Assembly: GCA_033220425.1 (NCBI GenBank)
Contig: CM065650.1
Span: 2,046,001-2,110,000, forward strand
Source: Lepraria neglecta
Taxonomy: Eukaryota; Ascomycota; Lecanoromycetes; Lecanorales; Stereocaulaceae
DNA: 64,000 bases
Direction of reading: 5' to 3'
A program made the translations under genes and the position numbers. This document shows positions 2,711-48,453 of this stretch, piece after piece. The notes under the pieces were generated by a model. It saw only the letters and a program-made list of their open reading frames with translations. It made no database searches and was not told the origin of the DNA. How positions within the stretch are numbered: the stretch's first letter is position 1; every line of letters starts with the position of its first letter.

Positions 2711-3008
2711 TGGTAGATAATCAATACGTTCTATATTAATAACTAGTAAAGTATAGTACAAGGAGTACCAGGAAGATTAACCAAGTTGAACACGCTGTTC
2801 CAAACAGTAGGCAAAGCCCCGTATATATAGACATAAGAAATCCTGCCAAGCATTCTTGATAGCATTGCTCGCACTGCGATCATTACGATCATCATTCCTG
2901 ATAGCATTGCTCGCACTGCGATCATTGCGATCATCGCTTCACCTGCCTGTCCTGTCCGAAGTCATGAGTCCTTCGCGACAGTCCTGTTAGAATCCCCTGG
3001 TTCTAACA
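2711..3008 (-). repeat. Putative 5' LTR of the Gypsy element
   Basis: The right end carries the palindromic arrangement typical of fungal Gypsy LTR starts: TGTTAGAA at 2985-2992 and its complement TTCTAACA at 3001-3008. Inside are a TATATATA stretch near 2822-2829 and two tandem 42-base units. The inner boundary near 2711 is a guess from a CA end before the leader. The partner LTR lies outside the window, so the call cannot be confirmed here. Confidence 0.45.
2851..2934. repeat. Tandem repeat, 2 x 42 bases, inside the putative LTR
   Basis: Units 2851-2892 and 2893-2934 differ at two positions. Each holds the internal near-palindrome GATCATTACGATCATC or GATCATTGCGATCATC. On the minus strand the unit is a multiple of three and happens to read as an open 14-residue repeat, which I do not regard as coding. 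Repeats of this sort are common in LTR U3 regions. Confidence 0.85.
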
Positions 3009-15548: not shown

Positions 15549-16779
15549 GTTTTTGACTCAAATATGAGTCGAAGAACACGCAAGCCTATTTGCAGACGTG
15601 TCGAATGTTGTCCTTGAAACGAAGGAGTCCACGCCCTGATAAGGGTCTTGGTGCTTTGTAGTCGAACTGCTGCCTAGAGGATCGCTTGCAGTTGTTTTGT
15701 CCCTCTCCCCTTCCTGCCGACTTGTCCGTCTCTTTCAAAACAATGAACGATCGCTATGATGTAAGACTCTCAGTAAACAAAGGATATGGGATTCGCGATA
15801 GTAGTAGAGTACAGTTGAATAGGTCGTAAATCAATAAAGAGAGACAGATTGGAGAGAACCGGGAAAGGGAATGTACAACGGGGCGCAGCAGCGACTTCTG
15901 CTCTAATTTTAGAGAAGGGGTTTCGGTGACGCGGACATCGGCCGGTAATTGACACTCTGCCGATGTCTTGGCGCTAATCCTTTGCCAATGTACCCGATAC
16001 AACCGTTCTCTGCACAATTCTCTGCACAATTCTCTGCACAATTCTCTGCACAAGGAACGACATTGCTCGTTTTCTTGATGAGTGACTTGCGAAGGAAACA
16101 CCTCATGTCAATAGGACGAGCTTCAACGGCTTTGTTACTGACGACGGGTAGGCCGCAACGTCTCGCCTTGACTGGACTCCTATCGCAGAAAGCCGGTTTT
16201 ACTGCCGAGATCAATTCCTGGTTTACTTTCCTTAGTTGTTTCATTCTCTGCCACCTGCCAATGTTTTGTTTTGACCTTGGTTGTGTGGAGACTGCATCCT
16301 AGCCGCATCGATTATTCTACACGTATCTGGTCGATGTAATGCTTCGCCTCGCAGTTGCGCGGACCTACTAGGTAGTTGCTTACATCCGCGGATGGTGTCC
16401 CGCTTGATGACAAGCCCCAAATCTCGATATCTTTCCAGAGGCCAATTGTAGTAACGAGTCGACGTGGTTAAGCATAGCCCCGCCTTGATATATGCATACG
16501 AAAGGACATGGTAGGTTTGGGAGGCTTCGGCCCTTTTATGTCACCGTTTGCGGCCTACGTACCTGCTATCGATCGCGCTCAATCAGTTCGTTAAAAGCTG
16601 CCTTCGGGATTGTGGAGTCTACAGGCACACGGCGGAACTTTCTGCAAGCTTATGTTCAGGATACGAACAGGTCTCTCAGATTCTCACTAATTATACTAAG
16701 CGATCTAAAACAGCTGAAAATCAGATTGCAAGCAAAGCAGGCAATGCACAAATTCAGCCCTCAGAGGCTAGCCAGCCTA
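15549..16779. other. Long upstream region of the bZIP gene
   Basis: About 1.2 kb without a supported gene separates the bZIP start from the end of the next minus-strand gene. It holds a 12-base minisatellite at 16006-16053. Long leaders with upstream ORFs are usual for fungal bZIP regulators of nutrient response. Several short open frames exist here, but I cannot tell whether they are transcribed. Confidence 0.4.
16006..16053. repeat. Minisatellite, 4 x 12 bases
   Basis: Four perfect tandem copies of TTCTCTGCACAA at 16006-16017, 16018-16029, 16030-16041 and 16042-16053. On the minus strand this reads as a repeated Cys-Arg-Glu-Leu, which is not within a supported gene. Perfect identity points to recent slippage. 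It lies about 460 bases upstream of the bZIP ATG. Confidence 0.95.
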
Positions 16780-26698: not shown

Positions 26699-29600
26699 CT
26701 ACCTTTGTTGTCGTACGGTACTAACTTCCACCGCTCCGGCTTGCTCCAGCAAGCTCTCGATCCTAGCCCGAAGTGCCAAGTCTGGGTGCTCGCTGCGAAA
26801 GGCCAAGCCCAAGGGTGTCAACCTAGAGACATCTTCCACATTCCAATCTGCTCCTTTGTCCAAGAGCATGCAGACTGCCTTTTCGTTATTGTGGAACACT
26901 GCAAGATGTAATGGAGTCCTGCCGCCATCATCTCTTGCTTCTAAATCTGCCCCATACTCAAGCAATGCGGGGATTCCACCTTCTTCACCTTGCCAATCTA
27001 AAGCTGCCGCCTCATGCAACGGAGTCCTGCCAGAAGCATCCGGTGCCTCCAAATCCGCTGCTTTCTCCTCCAGAAGATTTTGAATAACCTCTTCTCTGCC
27101 GAATCTAGCTGCGGTGTGCAACAGTGTCCGGCCGCGATTGTCTGTTGTTTCTATTTTTGCCCCTCTGGCCAAAAGCAGGTCGAATGTCTCTGACGGACTT
27201 TGCCGGACCGCTATTTGCAACGGGGTCTGACCCTTCTTATCTCTAGACTCCAAGCTTGCTCCCTTCTCCAGAAGGAGGCTGATCATATTTGTTCTGTGAC
27301 ACATGGTTGCTATGTGCATCGAAGTCCGGCTTTTACTGTCTGTACACTCCACACTTGCACCGTATTCCAGCAGTAAATGAGTTACATTCTCTATGCCATC
27401 AAAGACCGCCTTCTGTAGCGGAGTTTTGCCCTGATAGTTTTGAGTCTCTACATTGGCTCCTTGCTCCAAAAGCATTCGAAGTGTGCTGATCTCGTCTCTC
27501 TCTGCTGCGTGCTGTAACGCAGTACGGCCGTGAGAGTCTATTGTCTCGGGGTTTGCACCCTTATCAAGTAGAATCGCGAGAGCCGCAATTCTGCCGTTAT
27601 GTACTGAGTGATGTAGGGCGGTCCAATCCCAGCAGTCCTTAACTTCCATGTCAGCACCACGTTCGAGAAGAAGGGCTACCGCTTCAGCTTTATCGTATTC
27701 GGCTGCACTGAAGAGAGGTGTTTGATTGCGTTCGCCCGGCGCTTCGATATCAGCCTCGTTGTCGAGCAATGTCTTAATGATACTCAGATGCTCGTTGCGC
27801 GCTGCGCCATGTAGAGCAGTCCAGCCTTTGAATGATCTCGCGCTAACATTTACACCACTCTTAATGAGGAGATCGACAACTTGCTCGTGCCCATTCGAAG
27901 CGGCGGCACAAATAGCTGGACCATAGTGTACCCCCGCTGCCGCCATCGATATTCGCTCCATTCTGAAGCAGCAATTTAACTGTATCTTTGTGTCCAAATT
28001 GAGCCGCAAGCCCAAGAGCTGTACCTGTTCCCTTGCCCGAAAAATCTTTATCTTCATTCTCGAGACGAGCACCGCGCTGGATCAAAAGTAGACATACATT
28101 CGTATGGCCGTGTGCGGCCGCTGCTCCAAGCGGGTAGCCGTAGTTCCCACCACGAGCGTTGATAGCCATGTCACTGTCATCCAGAAGTACGCGGACTACT
28201 TCTTCAAAGCCGAGACTGGCTGCGTGATAAATGGGAGAGCCGAGGTCGTGGGATCTTGGCAGGGTTAGGAATGGTTTGTGTCTCATCCTATCTGGCCGGT
28301 GCACTTGGAGCCAGCTCTGCATCGCTGAATCTGAGAGGAGAAGTTGCATAAATAGGCCATTGATGAATGATGGCTGACCGGAAGATGTAGATTCTACCCC
28401 ATTGACAGCGCGCATGTGGACGTACCAGTACCGGCTGGCATAGCGTAGGAGTGGGAAACACCTGAAGTCTTTTGCAGAATTAGTGCGCGCATATGAGCTA
28501 TCGTAATGGAGCAGGTATATCAGGCAAGAGTCCGCGATGAACTGGTTCGCAGCGATGGTTGTAGTCCCAAAGTAAGATACCGGTCCGAGCCTTATCTTGT
28601 CACGTATCAGGTACTCTTTCACAGACAAGTGAGCAAGTCGAATTTCTTCTCGACCGAGTTTTTGACTCGTGGATATAGAAACGATTCCAGGTAGGATTTG
28701 GAGGATGTCGTATGGATCTGACAACCTGTCTTCGGGATTGAAAGCTGGATCTCTACCAGGCCCCACTAAAAGTGCTTCCACTAGCTCATCGAGCTTGAGA
28801 GGCCGTCCAGAGAATGTCAGCCACTTCAAAGCTGTAAGTGCATCCTCGCGGTAGTCCTCGTGTATATTAGTAAGGATGTGAGCGTATGTCTCCTCAAGAT
28901 CTTTGGGTAAAGATTTCAAATTTTGCCGAACCAGACTTGGTTTCAGGCATGATTTCAATGCCTCGAGCTGGCAGAAGATCCATCGAAACCTTTAAACTAA
29001 AATTAACAAGGATTCCAAGGACAGAGCGCGTGACTTACATGCCGTTCGCCTCACGCACAAGAGTCTCCTCGATCTCTGTCAACAGATCATGGGGCCAATT
29101 CTTCCGTTCTCCGAGTGCCCCTAACTCACTCCGTACATGTATCTTGATATCTGCATCAACCCGGGCACTCTGTATGGAAATTGCAGGGATGGTCAACATC
29201 GGAACTAGTACTGCTTCAATATCTAATTCTCTTCTGCTTGTGGCGAGTAAATGTAGGCTTTGAGACGACGAGACGTGGATGTTGTTGATAATCTTCAAGA
29301 GTTGCTCGCGTTCATTGTCTTCCACGCAGCATTCATCTAATGCATCCATAACAAGGAAAACTTTGCCGAAACCTTTTAGAATCCTGTCTAAAGCGGCCTG
29401 TAAGTCCTTCAACGTCGGCTTTTGATAGCCATCAAGGCATTTATGATATATGTCCTGGGCCCCATCCAATAGCGTTGTAGACTGGGAACAGAGCTGCGCA
29501 ACGACCGAGGATAGAAAACTGGAGGCTTTCTGCTTTTCAAGGTCATTGAAGTCGAAATAATAATACACAAGAGCGCAATTGCTGCTCGTAAGATGGTTTT

Positions 29601-30805
29601 CTTGGATATGGTCAATGATGGTCGAGCTGGAGATAGTCAATAGTGCGGCAAATATCCAAACATCCCGGCGAGATTACCTCAGAACAGTCTTGCCACCTAC
29701 AGATTTCTGAGTCAGCATTGCCATTTGAAGGAATAAGGCTGAGCCAAAAGAAAGTATTCGGAGCAGCATAAAGAACAAAAAAGGTAGTCTGGGAGTAGAG
29801 TGCTTGCCGAAAAGACAAGCGATAGGAGCATGATATGAGCGAAGTAAGGATATCTAGAACCAGCTTCCGCGCCAAGAGACGTGTCTGAGAAGTCGAGGCT
29901 AGGGAACAGAATCTCTCGCAGAGCAGAACTCGTGCCAAAAGACGTATCTCTGGAGCGATGAGACCGGGGATTTGGAGGTAAGAACCCAGAAAAGTGCACC
30001 TACATCCTGCTGATTTCATTAAGTCAGAATGAAAAGTTTGCTGTGGACTTGAAGAAGCTCACAGGTGCCATACAACCAAATCAACGAGTTTGGGGTTGTC
30101 CTCCATTTATCTAGCTCTTTGCTTTCTATCAGCCAAGTGCCGGTCATTGCTTGGTGCTTACGACGTTGTTCAACGTGGTTTGTTGATGGATCTGTGGTAG
30201 ATAGCCATGCTATAATGTCTCTGCGGAGCTTCTCTTCTTGCTGGTGCTGTCGATCATTGAGGTGGTCAACCCGCGCAGCAGCAAACTTTTCCTTCAATTG
30301 CGTCACCCCAGTGTCGATAGTAACGGTTAAAGTCCTGACTTAAATGAGCAAGCACTGAAACTAGATACAATTATCTGATTCCTTACGCTTGATCTGCCGT
30401 TAAGGCCAATGTGAAAGCTGACTTATACCTCTCAAGTGCGAGCACCGTCTTGTATACCTTGTCGTTTTTCAGCGGCCAAGTCAACGCTCTCCATCCCACC
30501 TTTCTCATGCCTTCATTTGGCTCCAACTTGTCCTTGACCCTCTGCAGCTCTGCAGCACATTGATCTGCAGGCCCATCCCGCTTGTTAAGAAGAGCCAAGG
30601 TAGCAAACTTGGGAGCGTCAGTGCTGTTGGCAAGCTCGGCCACTTTCTCGACAATCTCATGGAGGGCGAGGACTTCATTGCTAAGGCGTTGAATGTCCTC
30701 GCGAGCATGCTTGACTCCAATATAATATTGCTGACATAGAGAGAAGACTTTTGCGGAGAGTTCGACCAGTGAAATGACATTTGCTGCCACGCTAAGACCG
30801 TCCAT
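26699..30805 (-). CDS. STAND protein: Helo-like N-terminus, NACHT, about 15 ankyrin repeats; one G-run frame change
   Basis: Exons inferred: 30805-30387, 30334-30063, a 19-base microexon 29696-29678, 29626-29039 and 28989-26699; all junctions keep phase. The N-terminus MDGLSVAANVISLVELSAKV matches fungal Helo-like/PigL-type N-domains, which sense or execute cell death in NLR-like proteins. The NACHT core follows, with a Walker A ending GKTVLS, Walker B-like KVFLVMDALDEC, then LLATSRRELDIE and the winged-helix part SLPKDLEETYAHIL. Fifteen ankyrin repeats follow (three before about 27935, twelve after). Odd points: the Walker A glycine loop is shorter than usual as spliced (GTCGKT), and a run of five C (G on this strand) at 27931-27935 needs one base fewer for the ankyrin frame to continue. 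Without that the protein stops after the third repeat. It may be a pseudogene, a natural variant or a sequencing error. Confidence 0.75.
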
Positions 30806-35483: not shown

Positions 35484-35927
35484 TTATACCGAGACCATCA
35501 CATGACAATCCCTCGTTGTTGCGGAAAGGACGTTTTGCCCTCTGTGAATGTCTCCCCATCTGCTCTTATGTAGCTGCTGAGTCTTTGGGATTAGGTTCTG
35601 TTCCCAGGTTTCTAATGCAGTTCCGGTCATGACCCAGCATCTAAGACCGTTCAAGTCGATCAGTCGATCCCCGAATGAGTCTTGATATTTCTTCTGGGTT
35701 GGCAGGGGGGCATCGACTGGGGTCGATTTCTTGATCTTTGGGCGCAGTTTCTTTCCCAAGGCTCTCAGTGCATTTCCAGTTATAACCCAGCGTCTGGGAC
35801 TGTTTACGTCATTCAGTCGTTCCCCGAATGAGTATTGGTATGTCCTCTTGGATGGCTGGGTATCGTTGACCAGGGTCGACCCTGTCAGGGTGCGTTTAAG
35901 CGTGGGTGGATTGCGTAGAGAAGTCAT
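35484..35927 (-). pseudogene. N-terminal fragment related to the trypsin-fold gene at 44543-46673
   Basis: A 147-codon frame holds two successive copies of one segment: YQYSFGERLNDVNSPRRWVI and YQDSFGDRLIDLNGLRCWVM. Both resemble FEDSFAEQLGDLCDQSRWIL at the start of the protein encoded at 46673-44543. After the second copy the similarity continues (WEQNLIPKTQQL.. versus WENDLRGRVQEL.., then GDIHRGQN versus GEIHKGHI) and then ends. No protease-like region follows. It is a truncated, internally duplicated copy about 9 kb from the full gene, and may not be expressed. Confidence 0.55.
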
Positions 35928-35996
35928 AAGGGCAAGGAAAGACGAGTTATTTCAATTCTTCGTTATGTCTTAAGGCCTGTAGAAATAGTTCGGGGG

Positions 35997-44542: not shown

Positions 44543-46673
44543 TCATTTCGAGAAGGCTTCACGTTTGTGGCCGCAAGAGCTGCAGTAGCCATTCATAGAA
44601 TCGCTCATCGGGCCATTTAGATAACAATGGCTGCAATACCACTTTCGATCTTTGCGAGGGGACGAAGGCGGAGGTCCAGACTTAGGCTTGGAGGTGCTCT
44701 TGACGCAACTATGGTCTAGGGATAAAGGGTGGGCGCCTGCTGCAAGCAACGAGTTGACAAGCTCGACGTTCTTGAATAGAGAGGCTGAATACAGGACTTC
44801 ATCTAACGATGGGAGGGTGGGAAAATCTCCTTCCATAGCATTCTTGATACCAGCCAGAATTTCCCGTAAAGGGATCACATATGCTTCTTGGAGCATAGCA
44901 CTTCCCGCAACGAGAACGCCATAGACGTCACCAGTCCTAGCCTCAGCTACCCACGCACCAGAGTCTCCAATTCCTTGATAATCATCTCGTCAGCGGTAGT
45001 GTGCGAATTAAGCGGGCAAGAACTATGAAAGTAGCGAAAGGTTTGATAGGGTTCGACAACGAGAACTGAATAAGCGTAAAACTCGCTTGTCATTGCGTGC
45101 TCTTTAGCTTCTGATTGGAAGAGACCGCTATACTCAGCGAATAGTCTTGAGGCTTCCTTAAAGGCCGTAATAGAAAACAAAGCTGTGTCAACATACCTAG
45201 CATTTCCTCGGGGCGGATTGACCACATATGTCGAAAGTGACTGCTCCCTCGGAATTTGATCGAGCCAGCCGAGCCGGTTCCAATGCCCCTAACAATACCG
45301 TGCCTTGTCGCTACAACAACAGCGTTTCGAGGAGCGCTTTTCTTGAATCTCTTGAAATACAACCATTCTCGCCTATCTTTGTCGAGTAAGACTCCATTCA
45401 TGCCATGATGAAATGGATTGCGGATCTCAATCACAGCCCAGTCCATACCATCAAAAGCATTATCGTCACCATCGCTGAGCGGATGTTGCGACGACATGGC
45501 TACCACGCGTTCTGCTAGTTGGCCATCATCGGCCTCGTCCAGCTCAAACTTGACCGCCTTTGTATCCTCTTCCTTGAGCTCAATCTCCTGGCCTTCTTCC
45601 CCTTCTCTAATCGAGCGTGTGTCATCTTCCATGTCTTCGTCGCTGGATTCGAGCGATTCATCTCCTTCAACCCAGACATCTGCATTGCCCATCACGTCAC
45701 CTGAGACTAGATCCATATAGTATCCTTGGCCGGTTGCAAATACTTCGTCCTCTTCGCCATCTGCGTCCTCTTCGCCCTCTTCATCCTCTTCGTCCTCTTC
45801 GTCCTCTTCGTCCTCCTCGTCCTCCTCATAGTCTGACATCTCATTGTCTTCTTCATCCTCTTCATAGTCCTCGTCCTAGTCTGACATCTCATTGTCTTCT
45901 TCATCCTCTTCATAGTCCTCGTCCATTTCTTCTTGTTGTTGCTGTTCTTCCACATCCGTACCATTTTCGTCGTCAGAACTAACCAAAGCCCAGTCGCTGT
46001 CATAAAGAATCATCTCCCTGTTAGGATATTGTTCGTGTTGTGGAGCTTGAACGTCTTCTGTAAAAGCGTGAGCGACCGTGAGACCGTGGTACTGTCCGTT
46101 CAGGATGATGCCTCCGCCTAGTGTCACACTTCGAACCGGATCACCAATCTGAATCTCTGCTCCACACAAGCTCATCGGCGGACCTTGAAGGAGTTCATTC
46201 ACATGTGATGCGATGAGCGCCATGGAAGCCTCCGTGTACGACTGCAAGTCGTTTTTGGGGCAGCCTTTCAAGCCGAAGCCGTTGTTTTTAAGCACTCCAC
46301 ACTTCAGCATGACCCGCATTGTCCTCTTGAGAATGGCCTGCACCTCGATGAATATCACTACTGTAGGATGAGCGTGGGTCTTTGCAGGACCCATCATCCA
46401 ACAATGCCATGTCGTGGGAATGGACCTGATGTGGCCTTTGTGTATCTCCCCTTCATTCCCCTTTACCAATTCCTGCACCCTCCCACGTAGATCGTTCTCC
46501 CAAACATCCGACGCAGTCCCACGTAGAATCCATCGACTTTGGTCACAAAGGTCACCCAATTGTTCCGCGAATGAGTCTTCGAATCTAGGATCTGTTGGGG
46601 CGGCACCGCTGATTTTCTGCTTCAGGGCTTTCCACTTGGGCCCCAGGGCGGGTAAGCTTCCTGCCGTCGGCAT
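44543..46673 (-). CDS. Trypsin-fold protein with acidic tract and C-terminal RanBP2-like zinc finger, interrupted by a duplication-made stop
   Basis: Exons 46673-45197 and 44973-44543, joined over a 223-base intron (donor GTATGT, acceptor ATCAAG), make 635 codons. A trypsin-like triad is visible: His in GQYHGLTVAHAF, Asp in LYDSDWALVSS and Ser in GIGDSGAWV, the last created only by the splice. The N-terminal 100 residues (FEDSFAEQLGDLCDQSRWIL) recur at 35484. A long Asp/Glu tract separates the His/Asp part from a second barrel-like part (VVVATRHGIVRGIG). The C-terminus carries a helical KNVELVNSLLAAGAHP piece and a WYCSHC..YCSSCGH finger of RanBP2 type. Within the acidic tract a perfect 48-base tandem duplication creates an in-frame TAG at 45878-45876. 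Without it the frame would be open throughout. Whether the enzyme acts as a protease is inference. Confidence 0.7.
45829..45924. repeat. Perfect tandem duplication, 2 x 48 bases, in a coding region
   Basis: Units 45829-45876 and 45877-45924 are identical and start TAGTCTGACATCTCATTGTC. The 48 bases are 16 codons, so the frame is kept, but the junction brings a G next to TA on the minus strand and turns TAT into TAG. Adjacent GTCCTCTTC-type triplet runs (45770-45830) show that the tract is slippage-prone. Confidence 0.95.
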
Positions 46674-47104
46674 AAGGGGTCCGCAATAGGCAAGAGTCCT
46701 AGCAGGTCATTCGGGGTTGGGGCAGTGGAAGGGCGGCCGGGCGAAGCGCTACCCTCGACATGGCTGAAAGTAGATGTACCCGTATACTATAGCACTCTCA
46801 AAGCAGCCATTTCGAATCTGTGGCATTTCTGGCGATGTGAGTTGCAAGATGGTAAGGCTGTGGATGATTAAGACGCGACTTCGGTCTGTGATAGAAGCAG
46901 CCGATTGGTTCACCCGGCGAGGCCGGCTAGGCCGGCTTCTGGACTCTGTACGACAACCTTGCCATATTTATGCCTGCTCGAGTAAAATACCTTGAGGCAA
47001 CACGTATGGAAAGACTTCCAGAACACAATTAGTGTACCAGGTCTGTTGTGGTCCGAGAAACAAGACGTACTCGTGTTTGCCCTAGCCAATTAGAACGAGG
47101 CATT
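46674..47104. promoter_or_regulatory. Divergent promoter of the protease-like and anchored-protein genes
   Basis: About 430 bases between divergent starts. A short direct repeat GGCCGGCTAGGCCGGCTTC lies at about 46922-46940. No specific site is called. Confidence 0.35.
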
Positions 47105-48453
47105 ATGTCAGCGCCAAGAGTTCTTGACCCAGAGCTCGATAGGAGGCTCCTTCCCAATGAATGCAGGATAAATTCGAGCTCAATTAGCAAAGATTTGCGC
47201 TCTACTATTGTTGCTCGTCTCTGGGAATCTCCTTCGCTTCAGTGTCTAAAGGACTACTCGGCCTATTTCCAGCACTTTGCAGTAACATGCGAAACCTGGA
47301 GATCAAGTCCTGTTGCGATCCAGACATATCGAGACTTTCTGGACCTAGTGCAGCATCTAAGAACCCACCGAAATGATGCACGTGCTTCACCGAATATCCT
47401 GGAGTTCTTTCCGTCACCACCTCCGGCGAACATGCCTGCATCAGACTTACGAATGCCATTGACTACAGAGCAGACGCGTTTGCCGGTTGCCATGCGACAT
47501 ACCTCCTGTAGTAAAGACAGTGTACTGAACGCCATCAATCTAGCCGTCTGCCTTTGGTTGATGCTCAGTTCCGGACCCCCAGCGTCAACCAACTTTCCTG
47601 GTAGATCAACTCTAATTTGGACTGAGAGTGAGAGTCTAGACGACCTCATAGAGAAATCTTTTCCGAAGACTGATCCCAAAGAGTGTCTGCGGTGGCCTCA
47701 GTCTCTCAATCTTTGCAATCTAGACCGTATCGGAGGGTTTGAGATTGTTTGGACGGATCACTTGGCCGATCATCTATACCTGAATGAGGATCTACGCACA
47801 ATCAACATCTATCATCATGCTTGCGTGTTGGAGAGCCATAAAAGTGCAGGACAGCCATAGTAGGTGGATTTCATTGTCTATTTCGTCATTGCGAGGCTCT
47901 GTTGTGACTGCTTTGGCTTAAAGTCTGCTGGTCTTCGCCTATCCCATACCCACATTGGCCTTGTGGACCAGCCAGCTTTTTTACTTTCTTTACTCGTCAG
48001 AGCAGTACCACCGACGTCGTCGCTAATAACGTCCAAAGTGAAGCATTGCCAGCAGATCTACTACATGAAACCCTGCAAACTCTTGCGCTCCTCCTTCCAC
48101 GAGCAAATGGCGAGTGCAAGACATGGTTTGAGCGAGCCTATAAGAAAGTCGAAAGTCGTCATTCCGACGCTATTGATCCCAAAGCTGCCGATATAGCGGT
48201 GGGGTCTAAAGACCATGCACAACGGAAGTTTGAATTTTGGCACGAGAGACTCCGTATCATCCAAAAAGCTTATGACGAGTCAGAGCCAAGCACCCTTTCC
48301 CAATGGTGGAATGACAGGCGCAAGAAGGTTCAGTGGTATACCTTCTGGGTTGCAATTTTGATACTGTTCCTAACCATTGTATTTGGTATGGTCCAGGCTG
48401 TCACTGGAATCTTGCAAGTTTATGCTGCATTTCACTTTGCTCAATTGAATTGA
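47105..48453 (+). CDS. Fungal protein with C-terminal membrane anchor
   Basis: Exon 1 runs from ATG 47105 (the 19 codons upstream of it are also open) to about 47843, where GTGCAG follows GCCATAAAA. Exon 2 resumes near 48030 (EALPADLLHETLQTLALLLP) and ends at 48453. The intron boundaries are my best guess. The C-terminus has a charged helix (FWHERLRIIQKAYDE) followed by WWNDRRKKVQWYTFWVAILI and a membrane segment LFLTIVFGMVQAVTGILQVY. This matches a recurrent fungal family of large soluble proteins with one C-terminal helix and a juxtamembrane DRRxxxQWxTFW motif. No catalytic residues are known to me. Membrane location and topology are inferred. Confidence 0.6.

What the first reader, a model, noticed from the sequence alone, without database searches (positions are those of the whole stretch)
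45829..45924. A perfect 48-base tandem duplication that makes its own stop codon
Two identical 48-base units sit in frame in the acidic tract of the trypsin-fold gene. The junction changes TAT to TAG, so the duplication, though a multiple of three, truncates the product before the catalytic serine and zinc finger. Perfect identity means the event is very young, so intact alleles may exist in the population. Repeat-number change here could reversibly switch the gene.
Basis: seen in the sequence. Interest (0 to 1): 0.72.

Follow-up and report, generated by a model that had tools for sequence, protein, structure and literature searches.

The report
Duplication-truncated protease-like gene in pair
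A perfect 48-base duplication puts a stop codon in the middle of a protease-like gene, and that gene turns out to be half of a back-to-back gene pair, found at four places in this fungus-like genome, that resembles known fungal cell-death pairs.

Summary
In detail: 45829-45876 and 45877-45924 are identical over exactly 48 bp in a minus-strand gene, and the codon across the joint is TAG (45878-45876). It is the only perfect tandem duplication with a unit of 30-400 bp in 263,505 bases scanned. The stop leaves 265 residues with the putative catalytic His and cuts off Asp, Ser and zinc finger. Past the stop the frame is open, and one modelled 223-nt intron rejoins it to the Ser exon, so no second lesion is visible.

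Two inferences are weak. 'Very young' is not shown: no difference in 48 bp fits ages of millions of years. A reversible switch has no evidence; neither strains nor reads were available.

The context matters more. The gene is head-to-head with a gene for a protein with one likely membrane helix. Of five loci of that partner family found, four have a related protease-like gene divergently beside them; one protease runs into a HET domain. Best reading: a disabled allele (or assembly error) in the protease half of a two-gene module, probably of incompatibility or cell-death type, resembling but not shown to be a fungal protease-gasdermin pair.

The parts
45829..45876 (-). 48-bp repeat copy 1 (3' copy in gene orientation)
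   Evidence: identical to copy 2, identity run exactly 48
45877..45924 (-). 48-bp repeat copy 2 (5' copy in gene orientation)
   Evidence: TRF
45876..45878 (-). in-frame TAG across the copy joint
45876..46673 (-). truncated ORF, 265 aa: N-terminal domain plus putative catalytic His (codon 46070-46068)
45197..45875 (-). rest of exon 1 in the same frame after the stop; ATG at 45839-45837 inside copy 1; putative Asp codon 45443-45441
44974..45196 (-). proposed 223-nt intron: GTATGT donor, GCTGAC branch-like site, CAAG acceptor (an acceptor 12 nt earlier would also keep the frame)
   Evidence: without it the Asp-Ser spacing is exactly 86 codons, against 89 (L027) and 79 (L025)
44543..44973 (-). 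exon 2: GDSGAW (Ser codon 44962-44960) and C-x2-C...C-x2-C zinc finger (Cys codons between 44635 and 44573)
   Evidence: weak Pfam zf_Tbcl_2, 17.4 bits against cut-off 27
45743..45824 (-). 9-bp degenerate acidic-codon repeat (9.1 copies, 84%) beside the duplication
46674..47104 (.). 431-bp shared upstream region between the two divergent genes (ATG to ATG)
47105..47859 (+). modelled exon 1 of the partner gene (WTDxLADHL family)
48039..48453 (+). modelled exon 2 of the partner gene, with a strongly hydrophobic stretch near the C end; the 179-nt intron 47860-48038 was chosen to keep the frame

Best explanation
The 48-bp element is a tandem duplication, most simply from slippage in a purine-rich acidic-codon tract that codes for a length-variable loop between the putative catalytic His and Asp of a chymotrypsin-like protease. 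Its length keeps the frame, but the joint codon is TAG, so this sequence encodes a 265-residue fragment without Asp, Ser or zinc finger, which should not be a protease; the mRNA is probably also a decay target because an intron lies downstream. The gene is one half of a divergent two-gene module whose other half is a protein with one likely C-terminal membrane helix and, at this locus, an open gene model. By analogy with fungal protease-gasdermin pairs, the protease probably acts as sensor or activator and the membrane protein as executor or target in regulated cell death or incompatibility, so this allele would be a disarmed haplotype. Shown: the duplication, the stop, the open frames after it, the paired arrangement at four loci. 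Inferred: slippage, splicing, mRNA decay, protease activity, cell-death role.
For: Perfect repeat and TAG. After the stop the frame is open for 261 codons, 226 of them before the proposed intron, and the Ser frame for 148; the intron gives an 86-codon Asp-Ser spacing. Adjacent 9-bp array; His-Asp insert 209 codons here against 157 (L027), 88 (L025) and 81 (L028). Partner family: 5 loci; 4 of 5 (window, L025, L026, L027) have a family protease divergently upstream, L024 none. A profile of the N-terminal half trained on window, L027 and L028 finds the untrained L025 (E 7.5e-8) and L026 (E 3.7e-6); the best match in 15 control loci is E 0.76. The L026 protease piece runs into Pfam HET (E 3.4e-9). 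NACHT-type and ankyrin ORFs lie in the same window. Two-gene protease/gasdermin clusters: PMC12881547 section 21, PMC10197012 passages. Premature stops in het-Vb copies: PMC9262711 passages.
Against: No reads or strains, so an assembly error is not excluded. No Pfam, PDB or fold support for a trypsin fold. L025 matches the Asp-Ser profile only at E 0.055 and has GASGAW, not GDSG. L028 is a protease locus without a partner in 9.9 kb. Ascertainment: the genome searches with protease queries did not list L025; it was found beside its partner, so unpaired protease loci may have been missed. The L026 protease lies in pieces in several frames; whether introns or decay separate them is unknown. Three of five proteases carry Cys at the nucleophile position. 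Introns are models without RNA. The cell-death role is analogy; the partner gives no gasdermin hit.
Confidence: 0.6

Rival explanations
1. Assembly or consensus error: the real locus has another unit number and the gene is not interrupted.
For: The stretch sits among low-complexity repeats; the stop is the only visible lesion in an otherwise open gene.
Against: The unit is long and not a homopolymer or short repeat; perfect duplications with units of 30 bp or more are rare in what was scanned, 1 in 263,505 bases; no second version of the stretch was found.
Confidence: 0.2
2. A reversible repeat-number switch (phase variation) that turns the protease half on and off.
For: A perfect direct repeat can contract; repeat instability is experimentally shown in the Podospora hnwd genes (PMC2873952 passages).
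Against: One sequence only. TRF at score 40 finds 0, 0, 0 and 1 rows (a TCC run) at L025, L026, L027 and L028, so it is not a family feature. Two short copies contract less readily than long arrays (recalled).
Confidence: 0.06
3. The gene is still expressed: the stop is bypassed by splicing or readthrough, or translation restarts at the ATG inside the following copy, giving two half-proteins.
For: An in-frame ATG lies at 45839-45837, 36 nt past the stop, and the frame after it is open.
Against: In 45600-46100 the donor pattern searched gives no site, and the branch-like sites found (46024, 45976) lie about 100-150 nt upstream of the joint; other donors were not excluded. Separating His from Asp and Ser is not expected to give an active enzyme.
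Confidence: 0.1
4. A fixed pseudogene of the species rather than one allele among others. This differs from the best explanation only in frequency and can be true together with most of it.
For: Zero differences in 48 bp allows ages up to millions of years.
Against: No second lesion in about 1.1 kb of modelled coding sequence after the stop; that too is only a loose bound.
Confidence: 0.25

Closest known systems
Fungal gasdermin/protease two-gene clusters and het-Q1/het-Q2 (PMC12881547: section 21 and passages; PMC10197012: passages)
   Same: A protease gene beside a gene for a membrane-acting protein; proteases carrying various further domains; link to incompatibility
   Different: Those proteases are mostly S8 (about 63%) or CHAT (19%) in PMC10197012; here a chymotrypsin-like motif set. 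The partner here (370, 377 and 389 aa in the three full models) has one strong C-terminal hydrophobic stretch and no gasdermin hit
hnwd (het-r, het-e) repeat instability in Podospora anserina (PMC2873952: abstract part and passages)
   Same: Repeat change in a non-self-recognition gene, including inactivation
   Different: There WD40 arrays set specificity; here two acidic-linker units whose joint is a stop codon, and no variation has been seen
het-Vb pseudogenes in Neurospora (PMC9262711: passages)
   Same: One gene of a het locus lost through premature stops, different ones in different taxa
   Different: Data from many taxa and strains exist there, not here
Chymotrypsin-like (S1, PA clan) proteases (recalled)
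   Same: Ordered His, Asp, Ser motifs (TVAHAF, MDWAVIE, GDSGAW); 86 codons from Asp to Ser in the model
   Different: No Pfam hit; large acidic insert between His and Asp; Cys instead of Ser in three paralogues

Membership tests
Chymotrypsin-like (S1/PA clan) protease | His, Asp, Ser in that order in a double beta-barrel | tested here: inconclusive
   Motifs and spacing present; no Pfam protease match, PDB best E 0.97, fold pLDDT 33.8 on the truncated ORF alone
Fungal gasdermin/protease two-gene cluster | Protease gene clustered with a membrane-acting protein gene | tested here: inconclusive
   Clustering seen at 4 of 5 partner loci; that the partner acts on membranes or is the target is not shown
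Fungal gasdermin/protease two-gene cluster | Partner is a gasdermin cleaved by the protease | tested here: inconclusive
   No Pfam gasdermin hit and no PDB relative better than E 0.25; sequence only, no fold of the partner, cleavage not testable
HET-domain incompatibility protein | HET domain (PF06985) | tested here: not met
   Not in the three window pieces; present in the paralogue at L011/L026
Phase-variable (contingency) locus | Repeat number varies reversibly among clonal cells | not testable with these tools
   No reads or strains
Pseudogene / null allele | Disabling lesion in an otherwise recognisable coding gene | tested here: met
   TAG after 265 codons, rest of the modelled gene open; loss of function itself not tested

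The most novel reading that the evidence does not exclude
An undescribed fungal two-gene cell-death or incompatibility module: a chymotrypsin-like sensor protease (Ser or Cys nucleophile, varied C-terminal parts such as HET or zinc finger) divergently paired with a non-gasdermin, single-helix membrane protein, here caught in a haplotype whose protease was disarmed by a tandem duplication that writes its own stop.
Probability: 0.35. Interest if true: 0.75.

Novelty: new variant of a known kind. Interest (0 to 1): 0.48.

Why it matters
The stop-making duplication alone is a neat but ordinary way to lose a gene. The pairing is worth more: four diverged copies of a protease/membrane-protein pair in one genome suggest a selected functional unit, and one of the proteases runs into a HET domain. 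If the partner kills cells when cleaved, it would add a non-gasdermin executor to the fungal cell-death repertoire, and the disarmed haplotype would be a ready-made natural comparison.

Tried and rejected
Introns removing the stop: no site for the donor pattern searched (the script's printed 'stop triplet' was one base off, the position used here is that). A second disabling frameshift between the frames near 45200-44960: it first looked like extra decay; rejected because one intron with good signals restores both the frame and the Asp-Ser spacing. A 40-nt intron plus a coding middle piece: rejected as too short and without counterpart in the paralogues. Age from identity: too loose for 'very young' (rates assumed). 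PDB profile searches gave one hit at E 0.97 and four at E 0.25-0.77, taken as chance. AlphaFold on the truncated ORF was uninformative. The three-row protease alignment misplaced the His region of L027 and was used only. The L028 Asp-Ser distance (108.3 codons, not a whole number, across a change of frame) was not used as support. Other partner introns were possible; the one was chosen for frame.

Literature: nothing on a trypsin-like/TM gene pair in fungi in the listings (3 of 3 shown; 15 of 29; 0 found; 10 of 14; 12 of 12; 10 of 10); 'trypsin' does not occur in the main texts of PMC9815663, PMC12881547, PMC10197012 and PMC11138114 and occurs once, in the reference list, in PMC4986451. Searches (7 of 7 shown; 12 of 283 shown) were on repeat-made stops. 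The library holds open-licence papers only. Organism: not identified; 'filamentous ascomycete' is my inference, not from a call.

Full report
Observation. The two 48-bp units at 45829-45876 and 45877-45924 are identical, and identity at offset 48 stops exactly at their ends. The gene runs on the minus strand. The codon across the joint is TAG at 45878-45876 and closes a 265-aa ORF that starts at 46673. A scan of 263,505 bases for perfect tandem duplications with units of 20-400 bp (the window, 5 family loci and 15 loci of 10 kb at round-number positions on contigs C1, C3, C7 and C8) gave four rows: a 12-bp unit counted at 24, and units of 48, 24 and 25 bp. So the element is really in this assembly and is unusual.

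What the stop does. The fragment keeps an N-terminal domain and the putative catalytic His (TVAHAF). The probable Asp (MDWAVIE, codon 45443-45441), the Ser (GDSGAW, codon 44962-44960) and the C-terminal zinc finger lie beyond it. After the stop the same frame stays open for 261 codons. The Ser part sits in another frame, but one intron, 45196-44974, with a GTATGT donor, a GCTGAC branch-like site and a CAAG acceptor, joins them in frame and makes the Asp-Ser distance exactly 86 codons, against 89 in L027 and 79 in L025. Thus the TAG is the only lesion I can see. The donor pattern searched has no site near the stop. An ATG in the following copy (45839-45837, 36 nt past the stop) could in principle restart translation, giving a piece without the His.

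Where it sits in the protein. The duplication lies in an acidic insert between His and Asp, next to a 9-bp degenerate array; the coding strand of 45742-45960 is 79% purine. The His-Asp distance is 209 codons here and 157, 88 and 81 in L027, L025 and L028, so it is a length-tolerant loop. Slippage in this tract is the simplest origin (inference). TRF at score 40 found no repeats in L025, L026 and L027 and one TCC run in L028, so repeats are not a family trait.

Age and switching. Zero differences in 48 bp is compatible at 95% with ages up to 3.1 million years at an assumed 1e-8 substitutions per base per year, or 31 million at 1e-9. 'Very young' is therefore not established. No strain or read data were available, so neither intact alleles nor a reversible switch could be tested.

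The neighbour. Head-to-head with the protease gene, 431 bp away ATG to ATG, is a plus-strand gene modelled with two exons (47105-47859 and 48039-48453; 389 aa). A hydropathy scan gives one strong stretch near the C end in the window, L024, L025 and the L026 exon (19-residue means 2.46-2.50), with a weaker one (1.54-1.56) in the window and L024 proteins; the L027 second exon was translated but not scored. The family has five matches in this genome: window, C4 (L024), C5 (L027), C8 (L026) and C1 (L025) (the tool says counts are lower bounds). tblastn finds the same five, the four others at 24-38% identity to the first exon and 32-43% to the second. Protease-family genes lie divergently beside four of the five: window, L025, L026 and L027; none was found in the 9.9 kb of L024. 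A fifth protease locus, L028, shows no partner in its 9.9 kb.

Test of the pairing. L025's protease was not listed by the genome searches with protease queries; I saw it by eye beside its partner and then tested it. A profile of the N-terminal half trained on window, L027 and L028, run against 5,043 six-frame pieces of the window and 20 loci, finds L025 at E 7.5e-8, L026 at 3.7e-6 and an N-domain fragment in the window at 2.9e-6; the only match in the 15 control loci has E 0.76. The Asp-Ser profile, trained on window and L027, finds L026 (2.4e-14) and L028 (7.8e-10), L025 only at 0.055, and nothing in the controls at E up to 1. Because the partner search led to L025, unpaired protease loci may be under-counted; the fairer figure is 4 of 5 partner loci. 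Such coincidence in 42 Mb is far beyond chance for independent loci (my arithmetic, below 1e-10), although descent from one ancestral pair is the likely reason; the low identities make that pair old.

Immune-type features. The L026 protease piece continues into a Pfam HET domain (E 3.4e-9), although the rest of that protease lies in pieces in several frames whose joining I did not resolve. The window also holds a NACHT-type ORF (NPHP3_N, E 1.1e-23, 29038-29673) with ankyrin ORFs beside it (26702-28991). The nucleophile is Ser in the window (GDSGAW) and L025 (GASGAW) and Cys in L026, L027 and L028 (GDCGSW) (read). None of the protease or partner sequences scanned gives a Pfam protease or gasdermin hit.

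Comparison. A review states that more than 80% of fungal gasdermin genes are clustered with protease genes, and describes one such pair in which the protease activates the gasdermin (PMC12881547, section 21); another gives about 63% S8 and 19% CHAT (PMC10197012, passages). This locus resembles such a unit in gene arrangement; it is not filed as a member because the partner was not shown to be a gasdermin or a target. Repeat instability is documented for hnwd genes (PMC2873952, passages with part of the abstract). Premature stops differing between taxa are reported for het-Vb (PMC9262711, passages); the same paper notes that gene models had unsupported introns placed to avoid stops. A NACHT-ankyrin candidate with a null allele, hetE, is described in Aspergillus fumigatus and relatives (PMC11138114, passages). 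PMC9815663 names CHAT and S8 effector domains and PMC4986451 Peptidase S8 (passages); neither passage set shows a trypsin-like one.

Verdict. The most useful outcome is the paired arrangement, which turns an isolated pseudogene into a disarmed copy of a recurrent two-gene unit.

Noticed in passing
window 35487-35951 (-): A fragment with only the N-terminal domain of the protease family (profile E 2.9e-6; 35% identity to residues 3-95), about 10 kb from the full gene.
   Followed up: partly
L026, L027, L028 against window and L025: The nucleophile position is Cys (GDCGSW) in three family members and Ser in two, within one genome; L026 has SEWALV where the others have Asp.
   Followed up: partly
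L026 5832-6575 (+): Protease C-terminal piece running directly into a HET domain (PF06985), at a locus head-to-head with a partner gene.
   Followed up: partly
window 26702-29673 (-): NACHT-type (NPHP3_N) ORF and ankyrin-repeat ORFs, looking like an NLR-type gene.
   Followed up: no
L034 8657-8722: Perfect 24-bp repeat, 2.75 copies, of similar composition in a sampled control locus.
   Followed up: no
window 2851-2935 and 16006-16053: A 42-bp tandem duplication (95%) and a perfect 12-bp x4 repeat.
   Followed up: no
window 45981-45998 (-): An earlier SDWALV motif just before the acidic tract resembles the Asp motif of L025; the later MDWAVIE was preferred because of its 86-codon spacing to the Ser.
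   Followed up: partly
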